From: Candidatus Saccharimonadota bacterium
GTDB lineage: Bacteria > Patescibacteriota > Saccharimonadia > Saccharimonadales > Saccharimonadaceae
DNA length: 64,000 bases
Assembly: GCA_017511925.1 (NCBI GenBank)
Contig: JAFWHS010000014.1
Coordinates: 124,001-188,000 of the forward strand
Reading direction: 5' to 3'
The number at the start of each line of letters is the position of its first letter. Position 1 is the stretch's first letter. Below are positions 47,096-49,321 of the stretch, in pieces. Below the pieces are notes generated by a model. It worked only from the letters and a program-made list of their open reading frames with translations, searched no databases and was not told the origin of the DNA. A program made the position numbers and the translations under genes.

Positions 47096-47299
47096 TTATG
47101 CCTGTTTTCGCAAGGCTCTTTTGATTGCTGGGCGATCAAAACCTATTATCCGCTCTCCGTTGATCTCCGTCACCGGCACCGTATTGATCTCTGGATACTT
47201 GGTCGCATCCAGTTCTTCATATTCCACGCCCATTTCATCCAACCAATCCATCAAAGCATGGCAATATATACAAGTTGAAGTCGTATAAATCTTTATCAT
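47096..47299 (-). CDS. Glutaredoxin-like protein
   Basis: The 67-residue thioredoxin-fold protein has the redox pair CIYC near the N-terminus (residues 10-13), then VPVTEINGERIIGFD as in NrdH/Grx. It reduces disulfides. Overlaps the SpoU-type gene by 4 nt (ATGA-type overlap). Confidence 0.88.
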   Translation of the reverse strand: MIKIYTTSTCIYCHALMDWLDEMGVEYEELDATKYPEINTVPVTEINGERIIGFDRPAIKRALRKQA

Positions 47300-47802
47300 A
47301 AGTTCATTATACCATACATGGCAATTCCTGCCGCCACCGATACATTAAAAGACTCTTTTTGACCCTTCATTGGTATTTCCACAAACAGATCTATCATATC
47401 ATACAATGAATAATCTATGCCATCCACCTCCTCTCCAAGTATCAAAATAACCTTATCTCCAATTTTATCTTTGAGGCCCAAATCATTTAGTTTATACAGG
47501 GGTACATCTTCAATATTATTCTCCAAACCCACAACTTGCCACCCCTGTTTATGCAATTCTTTCACCTCAGTAAATATATCACCGCACGAATAAATATCTA
47601 GCATTTTTTCCGCACCTAGTGCGGTCTTATGAATTTCCTTATTTAGTTTTTCCCTCAAGTGTGGCAATAAATTCGCATCGTCAATCCTTGGAGTATACCC
47701 AGACAAAATTACCCGGCTCACTCCAAAACCTTCCGCCGTCCTAAAAATGGCGCCTACGTTATAACACGAACGAATGTTATGCATCACCAATATCATTTCC
47801 AT
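47296..47802 (-). CDS. SpoU/TrmH-family RNA methyltransferase
   Basis: The 168-residue SPOUT-fold enzyme has NVGAIFRTAEGFG, LILGEEVDGID and IPMKGQKESFNVSVAAGIA, which form the knot that binds S-adenosylmethionine. It 2'-O-methylates tRNA or rRNA; the exact target is unknown. A TATAAT box (47810-47815) lies 7 nt before the ATG, so probably leaderless. Confidence 0.92.
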   Translation of the reverse strand: MEMILVMHNIRSCYNVGAIFRTAEGFGVSRVILSGYTPRIDDANLLPHLREKLNKEIHKTALGAEKMLDIYSCGDIFTEVKELHKQGWQVVGLENNIEDVPLYKLNDLGLKDKIGDKVILILGEEVDGIDYSLYDMIDLFVEIPMKGQKESFNVSVAAGIAMYGIMNL

Positions 47803-47914: not shown

Positions 47915-48178
47915 ATGGCAACATTAAGCCATTGGCTACAAAACGTCGAGCTAATCGAGGTACCATTAGCAATCGTAGCAGCAATCGTATTAACTTTCAC
48001 CGTGAGGGCCATAGGCTGGTCCCCCTTAGAAAAAATGCTCATAGCAGCTGCAGCGTTTTGCGCATGTTTCGCCGATCAGGCGATGCCTTATGACACGCTA
48101 TTTGACGTTTTGGTCGTTCTGCTAGAAGCAGTGCTCATTATTTTACCTATTCTCCGATATTTTTATTATCGGAGGTAG
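47915..48178 (+). CDS. Small membrane protein of unknown function
   Basis: The 87 residues contain about three hydrophobic segments and end in RYFYYRR. AAGGGGGTG precedes the ATG; a TTGACT-like promoter lies around 47870-47895. Two hairpins close the gene: CTCCGATA/TATCGGAG inside the last codons (48152-48174), then the terminator. No family recognised. Confidence 0.65.
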   Translation: MATLSHWLQNVELIEVPLAIVAAIVLTFTVRAIGWSPLEKMLIAAAAFCACFADQAMPYDTLFDVLVVLLEAVLIILPILRYFYYRR

Positions 48179-48181
48179 CCG

Positions 48182-48204
48182 ATCCCCGCTTAGCGGGGAT
48201 TTTT
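48182..48204 (+). terminator. Terminator of the 87-residue membrane protein gene
   Basis: An 8-bp stem ATCCCCGC/GCGGGGAT with a 3-nt loop, then TTTT. Confidence 0.85.
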
Positions 48205-48251
48205 CCTGACTTTTATGATATAATATTGTTAAGAAAAATCAAATTTTAATT

Positions 48252-49313
48252 ATGCGAAATCACCTTTTATCTCAACATTTCTTACGTAACCCTCGTTTAG
48301 CTTTAATTTTGATCGGCCACTCAAACCTTAAAAAACGCGATCTCGTAATCGAAATCGGCGCTGGCTCCGGCGTCATTACTAGCGCTTTGTCAAAACGCGT
48401 GCGCAAGGTCATCGCCATCGAACCAGACCATCAAACTGCCTCAAAATTACGCGAAAATCTCACAAAACGCAATATTTCAAACGTAAAAATCGTAGAAGAA
48501 GATTTCTTAAAATACCAACTACCTTCCGAACCCTACAAAATCTTTTCCAATCCACCTTTTCATCTTAGCTCAGCCATTATCCATCGTTTACTAGAAGCAA
48601 ACAACCCACCCGAAGCTTTTTACCTCATCCTCCAAAAACAGTTTGCATTAAAACTCTTAAACACTGACCGCCATTATACTTCTCAACTTGGCCATACCTT
48701 AATCCAAAAATACCAAACCAAAATCCGTTTACCGCTCAAAAATACTGATTTCACTCCACCGCCAGCCGTTCCTACCGTATTTTTTGAAGCCAAAAAAATC
48801 CCCGATACGGCCACAGATGAGCAAATCATCAAAGCTCTAAAATCCAGCCAAATCGCCACCGTTCCAACTGAAACAGTAGAAGGCTATGCCGTGGCGCTAA
48901 ATTCAAAAGACGGTATTCTTAATCTTATGAAGCTCAAAAACCGCGATTTTGATTCCGGTAAAATTTTTACTCTCGTCCCAGAAAATATTGATGCCATTTC
49001 AAAATACGTCATAATTCCAGACACCGCAAAAAGCCTGATCAAAGAACATCTTCCTGGTGAACTCACTCTCATTTTACCTAAAAACCCAGACTTCCATCAT
49101 TTTTACTACGACCATTTTAATACCATTGGCATCCGCATCCCAGCTCACCCATTATTCCCAAAAATCGCCAAAGAAGTTGGACCGATCCTCCTCACTTCAG
49201 CCAATCCTCGTGGCGGCACTCCGCGCACGCTAACCGGCCACTTGCCCTCCACTATTATTGATTTGTCTGGCAATAAGCCAAAAATCATCCGCCAAGGTAA
49301 TCTCGTGGTATAA
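48252..49313 (+). CDS. Fusion: rRNA adenine dimethyltransferase (Erm/KsgA) + TsaC/Sua5 domain
   Basis: Residues 1-185 are a SAM-dependent rRNA adenine methyltransferase: LSQHFLRNPRLA, VIEIGAGSGVITSALSK, and the catalytic NPPFHLSSAIIHRLLE. It resembles Erm (23S) as much as KsgA (16S) and lacks the small C-terminal domain. Residues 196-353 form a YrdC/Sua5/TsaC domain (TVPTETVEGYAVAL, LPGELTLIL, GIRIPAHPLF, LLTSANPRGG), which makes threonylcarbamoyl-AMP for the tRNA modification t6A. These functions are usually separate genes. No frameshift or gap is visible between them. No Shine-Dalgarno precedes the ATG. Confidence 0.85.
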   Translation: MRNHLLSQHFLRNPRLALILIGHSNLKKRDLVIEIGAGSGVITSALSKRVRKVIAIEPDHQTASKLRENLTKRNISNVKIVEEDFLKYQLPSEPYKIFSNPPFHLSSAIIHRLLEANNPPEAFYLILQKQFALKLLNTDRHYTSQLGHTLIQKYQTKIRLPLKNTDFTPPPAVPTVFFEAKKIPDTATDEQIIKALKSSQIATVPTETVEGYAVALNSKDGILNLMKLKNRDFDSGKIFTLVPENIDAISKYVIIPDTAKSLIKEHLPGELTLILPKNPDFHHFYYDHFNTIGIRIPAHPLFPKIAKEVGPILLTSANPRGGTPRTLTGHLPSTIIDLSGNKPKIIRQGNLVV

Positions 49314-49321
49314 TATATCTT

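What the first reader, a model, noticed from the sequence alone, without database searches (positions are those of the whole stretch)
48252..49313. Fusion of an rRNA adenine dimethyltransferase with TsaC/Sua5
One continuous frame joins an Erm/KsgA-like methyltransferase, without its usual C-terminal domain, to a YrdC-type threonylcarbamoyl-AMP synthase. Both act on RNA modification (rRNA m6,2A and tRNA t6A), so the link could coordinate ribosome and tRNA maturation, or the YrdC part could act as an RNA-binding module. I know of no described protein with this layout, but could not search.
Basis: partly seen in the sequence, partly recalled or inferred. Interest (0 to 1): 0.7.

Follow-up and report, generated by a model that had tools for sequence, protein, structure and literature searches.

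The report
Erm-like methyltransferase fused to TsaC
In one rumen-type Saccharibacterium, two normally separate enzymes, a short antibiotic-resistance-type rRNA methyltransferase and the enzyme that starts the universal tRNA modification t6A, are encoded as one protein; the join is real but rare, most likely a neighbouring-gene fusion, and one of many unlike fusions of this tRNA enzyme in these tiny bacteria.

Summary
One 353-aa frame (48252-49313, +) joins a complete RrnaAD-type methyltransferase (residues 1-183) to a complete TsaC/YrdC domain (about 185-353), with no in-frame ATG, GTG or TTG between them. The genome, a Saccharibacterium of the Candidatus Nanosyncoccus group, has a separate full KsgA but no other YrdC domain, so its t6A synthesis must rest on the fusion. 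The methyltransferase is Erm-like, not KsgA. Its missing C-terminal domain is ancestral: standalone genus homologues also end near residue 183. Motif IV is NPPF, so dimethylation is not shown.

Among 174 genomes of the genus, 114 carry the methyltransferase and 59 a YrdC domain; only this one joins them. It sits in the trmL/tsaC gap of a conserved block. In another genome a membrane-protein gene sits in the same gap and is also fused to TsaC. The best reading is fusion by insertion of a gene upstream of tsaC with loss of tsaC's start. TsaC fusions recur across Patescibacteria with unlike partners (TsaE, TrmB, TruB, others), so a special rRNA-tRNA link is possible but unproven. New architecture of known enzymes; moderate interest.

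The parts
48182..48204 (+). Inverted repeat ATCCCCGC/GCGGGGAT followed by T-run: probable terminator of the upstream 87-aa ORF
   Evidence: Read directly; terminator-like hit overlapping it at 48194-48208, consensus only
48214..48224 (+). TATGATATAAT, probable -10 element of the fusion gene, 27 nt before the ATG
   Evidence: Read directly; the same motif (translated as YDII) precedes most standalone tsaC starts in the genus. Inferred, not tested; not picked up by the consensus scan
48252..49313 (+). Fusion gene, 353 aa plus stop
48252..48800 (+). Erm-like rRNA adenine N6-methyltransferase domain, residues 1-183, catalytic domain only
   Evidence: Pfam RrnaAD; NCBIfam Erm broad 148.7 bits against ksgA 115.1; AlphaFold2 pLDDT 91, pTM 0.88, KsgA/Erm folds in the PDB at TM 0.8-0.89
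48351..48371 (+). SAM-binding motif I, EIGAGSG (residues 34-40)
   Evidence: Glycines 36, 38, 40 invariant in the genus alignment
48549..48560 (+). Catalytic motif IV, NPPF (residues 100-103)
   Evidence: N100 and P102 invariant, P101 and F103 nearly so; NIPF/NIPY/NLPF/NLPY in the Erm and KsgA compared
48801..48818 (+). Junction, residues 184-189 (PDTATD); no stop, no ATG/GTG/TTG
48816..49310 (+). TsaC (YrdC) domain, short genus variant lacking ~20 residues before PSTIID
   Evidence: Pfam PF01300; NCBIfam TIGR00057 107.9 bits, under its 123.2 cut-off; alignments; AlphaFold2 blocks mostly above 90 and Sua5/TsaC2 folds in the PDB
48936..48944 (+). KxR of the TsaC tetrad (K229, R231)
49194..49205 (+). 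T315 (TsaC-type signature residue) and SxN of the tetrad (S316, N318)
   Evidence: family definition in PMC10321239
49322..51577 (+). leuS, next gene; its probable -10 TATAAT (49309-49314) overlaps the fusion's stop
   Evidence: tsaC followed by leuS is a common genus order
47296..47802 (-). TrmL-like SpoU-type methyltransferase gene, left border of the slot that received the methyltransferase
   Evidence: name by sequence resemblance only
47915..48178 (+). 87-aa membrane-like ORF in the same slot, without homologue in the loci then held and without Pfam match

Best explanation
A genuine, probably recent fusion seen in one genome only. A short Erm-like methyltransferase gene (with a small ORF) came to lie in the gap between trmL and tsaC, directly upstream of tsaC. 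Its stop and tsaC's own start were lost, so one promoter and one start now give a bifunctional protein. The N-terminal half is a complete SAM-dependent rRNA adenine-N6 methyltransferase of the truncated Erm(37)/Erm(41)-like layout, predicted to methylate 23S rRNA. The C-terminal half is the cell's only TsaC and makes threonylcarbamoyl-AMP for TsaD/TsaB/TsaE. The halves probably work independently, and the fusion mainly ties their expression together. Shown: frame, domains, catalytic motifs, absence of another YrdC domain, presence of KsgA, TsaE and the TsaD/TsaB fold, uniqueness among 174 genus genomes, ancestral absence of the C-terminal domain. Inferred: order of events, activities, rRNA target, independence of the halves.
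For: One frame with both domains; no start codon for TsaC alone. Standalone genus methyltransferases end where the fusion's TsaC begins. Conserved block nudix-nusB-grx-trmL | tsaC-leuS in relatives, with the methyltransferase and the 87-aa ORF inserted in the trmL/tsaC gap here. Parallel event: in G014 a 737-aa PF10131 membrane protein-TsaC fusion lies in the same gap before leuS, while its sister TsaC in G149 has its own ATG. Catalytic motifs kept. Neither half sits on an unusually long branch (0.16 and 0.32), and low nonsynonymous against saturated synonymous divergence indicates long-term constraint. Only YrdC domain in the genome, with TsaE and two TsaD/TsaB-fold matches and a separate KsgA.
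Against: One assembly only; no reads and no second genome of the species were available. No activity or target data. TsaC and methyltransferase co-occur more than expected without regard to phylogeny (48 of 59 TsaC genomes, Fisher p 0.002). Other TsaC fusions in the phylum include RNA-modification partners, which fits a functional bias as well as chance neighbours. The two halves have different nearest relatives in their trees, weakly supported.
Confidence: 0.75

Rival explanations
1. Functional coupling: the fusion physically or temporally coordinates rRNA methylation and tRNA t6A formation (shared RNA binding, co-localisation at the ribosome, or fixed stoichiometry under selection).
For: TsaC is fused to other RNA-modifying enzymes elsewhere in Patescibacteria: TsaE (G680, G608, G792, G571), TruB (G777), TrmB (G348, G363, G417, G404). 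Truncated Erm lacks a domain thought to help RNA binding (PMC8844858), which an appended domain might replace.
Against: Standalone truncated methyltransferases exist in 113 other genus genomes without TsaC attached. Partners of TsaC also include a PF10131 membrane protein, DUF4015 and HIT. The two targets lie on different RNAs. No structure of the whole or assay.
Confidence: 0.12
2. Assembly or sequencing artefact: two genes wrongly joined, or a stop/frameshift lost at the A7 run in the junction.
For: A single assembly (24 contigs, 4.5% contamination estimate); an AAAAAAA run at the junction.
Against: Both flanks match the conserved block, so a misjoin would need two breakpoints around an insert. 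GC3 is even across trmL, both halves and leuS (0.39, 0.39, 0.43, 0.43). TsaC has no start of its own in its frame. G014 shows the same kind of event independently.
Confidence: 0.08
3. One half is a passenger in decay: the TsaC or the methyltransferase part is no longer active, since most of the genus lives without TsaC and many without the methyltransferase.
For: No YrdC domain found in 115 of 174 genus genomes; no methyltransferase match at E 1e-30 in 60; the short TsaC variant scores under NCBIfam's cut-off.
Against: Frames intact, catalytic residues kept, branches not long, synonymous changes dominate.
Confidence: 0.05

Closest known systems
Erm(37) and Erm(41) of mycobacteria (Erm without C-terminal domain, ~20 kDa; PMC8844858)
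   Same: Erm-type catalytic domain that ends before the C-terminal helical domain; chromosomal
   Different: Here the polypeptide continues into TsaC; motif IV is NPPF; rRNA target untested; closest fetched Erm are Erm(42)/Erm(53), about 48% identical over 128 residues
TsaC (YrdC), E. coli type
   Same: K/R/S/N tetrad and Thr signature before SxN; YrdC fold
   Different: Fused at the N-terminus to a methyltransferase; short variant without ~20 residues; VEGYA in place of the VYGLG-like motif; under NCBIfam's equivalog cut-off
Known YrdC-domain fusions: Sua5, HypF, TobZ (PMC10321239, PMC9654439)
   Same: YrdC domain as part of a longer protein
   Different: Partners there are the SUA5 domain or Kae1-like carbamoyltransferase domains; no methyltransferase
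KsgA/RsmA (16S rRNA dimethyltransferase)
   Same: Same superfamily and fold
   Different: The genome has its own full-length KsgA; the fusion's domain lacks the C-terminal domain and groups with Erm
TsaC-TrmB, TsaC-TsaE, TruB-TsaC fusions found here in other Patescibacteria
   Same: TsaC joined to another RNA-modification enzyme in one frame
   Different: Different partner enzymes and domain order; separate lineages; I found no published description

Membership tests
TsaC/Sua5 (YrdC) | KxR/SxN catalytic tetrad (PMC10321239) | tested here: met
   K229, R231, S316, N318
TsaC/Sua5 (YrdC) | TsaC-type Thr/Ser signature residue rather than Sua5-type Pro | tested here: met
   T315 directly before SxN
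TsaC/Sua5 (YrdC) | YrdC fold and Pfam PF01300 above cut-off | tested here: met
   94 bits against 25.1; model matches Sua5/TsaC2 structures
TsaC/Sua5 (YrdC) | NCBIfam equivalog score for L-threonylcarbamoyladenylate synthase | tested here: not met
   TIGR00057 107.9 bits against 123.2; a standalone genus TsaC scores 107.7 too, so it is a trait of the short variant, not of the fusion; a curated score cut-off, not a biochemical feature
TsaC/Sua5 (YrdC) | TC-AMP synthesis | not testable with these tools
   Needs enzyme assay or complementation
Erm 23S rRNA methyltransferase | RrnaAD catalytic domain with SAM motifs | tested here: met
Erm 23S rRNA methyltransferase | Groups with Erm rather than KsgA | tested here: inconclusive
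   Erm profile 148.7 against ksgA 115.1 bits, but under the 212 cut-off, which a truncated protein can hardly reach. The tree joins it to Erm(42)/(53)/a Salmonella Erm-like protein with 88/83 support and away from Saccharibacterial KsgA; long branches present
Erm 23S rRNA methyltransferase | Motif IV (A/S/N)(L/I/V)P(Y/F) of dimethyltransferases | tested here: not met
   NPPF; (N/D)PP(Y/F/W) is associated with monomethylation (PMC6787224)
Erm 23S rRNA methyltransferase | C-terminal helical domain | tested here: not met
   Absent, as in standalone genus members and in Erm(37)/Erm(41) (PMC8844858)
Erm 23S rRNA methyltransferase | Methylation of 23S A2058 | not testable with these tools
   Needs rRNA mapping; the report therefore says Erm-like, not Erm
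KsgA/RsmA | Best match to ksgA profile above cut-off, with C-terminal domain | tested here: not met
   115.1 bits against 171; the genome's other gene scores 207.2 and fills the role

The most novel reading that the evidence does not exclude
In Patescibacteria TsaC acts as a fusion hub: it is repeatedly joined to other RNA-modification enzymes (TsaE, TruB, TrmB, a TsaB-like fragment, and here an Erm-like rRNA methyltransferase) because tethering this patchily kept enzyme to RNA-bound partners couples or localises the synthesis of short-lived TC-AMP. The window's protein would then be a bifunctional rRNA/tRNA modification enzyme selected for coupling.
Probability: 0.13. Interest if true: 0.65.

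Novelty: new variant of a known kind. Interest (0 to 1): 0.42.

Why it matters
It adds a domain pairing not found in the literature searched (rRNA adenine methyltransferase plus TsaC) and, with its relatives, shows how a nearly universal tRNA-modification enzyme is lost, kept and fused in reduced, host-dependent bacteria. The finding that most genus genomes keep TsaD and TsaE but show no TsaC makes the question of where TC-AMP comes from directly testable, as already asked for Nanoarchaeum (PMC10321239). If the halves are coupled, it would link rRNA methylation and t6A in one polypeptide.

Tried and rejected
Alignments A1 and A3 mixing standalone methyltransferases and TsaCs misaligned TsaC rows to the methyltransferase half and were not used for folding; A2 and A4 were. 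The fusion model from A2 is poor in the methyltransferase half because only three such rows were in it, so it says nothing about domain packing. Phage search with TsaC gave only 22-30% matches, no sign of phage origin. Long YrdC frames that turned out not to be new fusions: HypF (G499), Sua5 (G336; G710, with an N-terminal extension), upstream open frame only (G274, G010), TsaC and TrmB adjacent but separate (G267, G260). The dN/dS comparison has saturated synonymous sites and cannot date constraint to after the fusion. Coordinates tried for protein scans were wrong twice. Paper searches gave no description of this or of TsaC-TrmB/TsaE/TruB fusions, but only open-licence papers are held.

Full report
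Check of the observation. The window holds one continuous frame at 48252-49313 (+), 353 aa from an ATG. Pfam finds RrnaAD at residues 6-180 (113 bits, cut-off 24) and the YrdC domain at 195-323 (94 bits, cut-off 25.1). Between residue ~50 of the methyltransferase and the first TsaC motif (PTETV) there is no in-frame ATG, GTG or TTG, and the other two frames of the junction are closed. The TsaC half therefore can only be made as part of the fusion unless an ATC codon were used as start.

Whose genome. The window lies in G000, 832 kb in 24 contigs. A same-genus genome, G001, carries its methyltransferase at C1:81301-81849 on the minus strand, which matches the place of the locus named Candidatus Nanosyncoccus alces (L017); the genus is therefore taken to be Nanosyncoccus-like Saccharibacteria (lineage). 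This identification is by matching coordinates, not by a name on the window. Most named relatives come from ruminant guts.

Gene content. The genome has one YrdC domain, in the fusion, and two RrnaAD proteins: the fusion and a separate 245-aa protein at C24:217641-218369 that passes the ksgA equivalog cut-off (207 bits against 171). It also has two TsaD/TsaB-fold matches and one TsaE. So the fusion is the only candidate for TsaC, and the methyltransferase half is not the cell's KsgA.

The methyltransferase half. The Erm profile scores it at 148.7 bits and ksgA at 115.1; on plasmids the best hits are Erm(53) and Erm(42), 48-49% identical over 128 residues. In a tree the genus methyltransferases form one group (99/98), joined to Erm(42), Erm(53) and a Salmonella Erm-like protein at 88/83, apart from the Saccharibacterial KsgA; some branches are long, so this is good but not final. 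The missing C-terminal domain is not a result of the fusion: in the standalone relatives the protein ends a median of 3 codons after residue 183. The known parallels are Erm(37) and Erm(41) (PMC8844858). Motif IV is NPPF, conserved in the genus, whereas Erm and KsgA references have NIPF/NIPY/NLPF/NLPY; PMC6787224 associates (N/D)PP(Y/F/W) with monomethylation. A model of this half is confident (pLDDT 91, pTM 0.88) and matches KsgA and Erm structures.

The TsaC half. It has the K/R/S/N tetrad that defines the family and the Thr signature of TsaC (definitions from PMC10321239). It belongs to a short genus variant that lacks about 20 residues before PSTIID. The model of this half is confident and matches Sua5/TsaC2 structures.

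Distribution. Over 174 genus genomes, the methyltransferase (E <= 1e-30) is in 114 and YrdC in 59 (the same number with the window's own TsaC as query). Only G000 has both in one frame. The genes co-occur in 48 genomes; from the places listed they are near each other in only a few (G025, G063, G092, G097, G120 and the window). They are convergent neighbours in three of these and separated by trmL and grx in two.

How it arose. Relatives share a block nudix, nusB, grx, trmL on one strand and tsaC, leuS on the other. In the window the methyltransferase and an 87-aa ORF lie in the trmL/tsaC gap, followed by TsaC and leuS. In G014 a PF10131 membrane-protein gene lies in that same gap and runs on into TsaC as a 737-aa frame, again followed by leuS. 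G149, whose TsaC is G014's sister (100/99), has TsaC with its own ATG. Two unrelated genes in the same gap, each fused to TsaC, point to insertion next to tsaC with loss of its start as the cause, not to a special affinity of the two enzymes. The order of events is inferred.

Wider pattern. Elsewhere in Saccharimonadia TsaC is fused to TrmB (G348, G363, G417, G404; G406 has both in one frame by tblastn) and to a HIT domain (G221). Over 381 Patescibacteria genomes many YrdC frames are longer than TsaC alone. Of those inspected, several are TsaC-TsaE or TsaE-TsaC (G680, G608, G792, G571), others TruB-TsaC (G777), TsaC with a TsaD/TsaB-fold fragment (G797, G663), TsaC-DUF4015 (G629, G538), RNA-ligase-like-TsaC (G694), besides ordinary HypF and Sua5. 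I found no second RrnaAD-YrdC, but I inspected a sample, not all. The papers searched mention only Sua5, HypF and TobZ as YrdC fusions.

Is it real DNA. There are no reads here. Against an artefact: both flanks agree with the conserved block, GC3 is even across the join, both halves are complete, and a like event exists independently in G014. A run of seven A at the join is a place to check.

Conclusion. A real and rare bifunctional fusion of two known enzymes, very likely with both halves active, most likely born from gene neighbourhood. Functional coupling is possible but unproven. The more striking fact met on the way is that 115 of 174 genus genomes show no YrdC domain although nearly all have TsaD-fold and TsaE genes; low tsaC conservation in CPR bacteria has been reported (PMC12641178), and absence in obligate symbionts is discussed in PMC10321239.

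Noticed in passing
Genus-wide: No YrdC/TsaC domain found in 115 of 174 genus genomes (72 of 110 near-complete ones), while TsaD/TsaB fold is in 173 and TsaE in 168: the source of TC-AMP in most of the genus is unclear.
   Followed up: partly
L149:1146-3359 (G014): Independent fusion of a PF10131 membrane protein with TsaC (737 aa) in the same genomic slot before leuS.
   Followed up: yes
L151:1807-3150; L152; L185; L186; L188: TsaC-TrmB fusions (t6A synthase plus putative tRNA m7G methyltransferase) in several Saccharibacterial genera; in many other genomes tsaC and trmB are adjacent.
   Followed up: partly
L210, L211, L215, L217: TsaC and TsaE in one frame, in both domain orders, in other Patescibacteria.
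   Followed up: partly
L216:1779-2993 (G777): TruB-TsaC fusion, 405 aa.
   Followed up: no
L219, L220: TsaC followed by a short TsaD/TsaB-fold segment in one frame.
   Followed up: no
L205, L207; L206, L214: TsaC joined to DUF4015 (putative glycosyl hydrolase), and RNA-ligase/LigT-like proteins joined to TsaC.
   Followed up: no
L154:1390-2391 (G221): TsaC-HIT domain fusion.
   Followed up: no
window 47915-48178: 87-aa membrane-like ORF with a terminator behind it, no Pfam match and no homologue in the loci then held.
   Followed up: partly
Genus tsaC starts: A TATAAT-like box directly before most tsaC start codons (translated as YDII), suggesting leaderless or near-leaderless transcripts.
   Followed up: no
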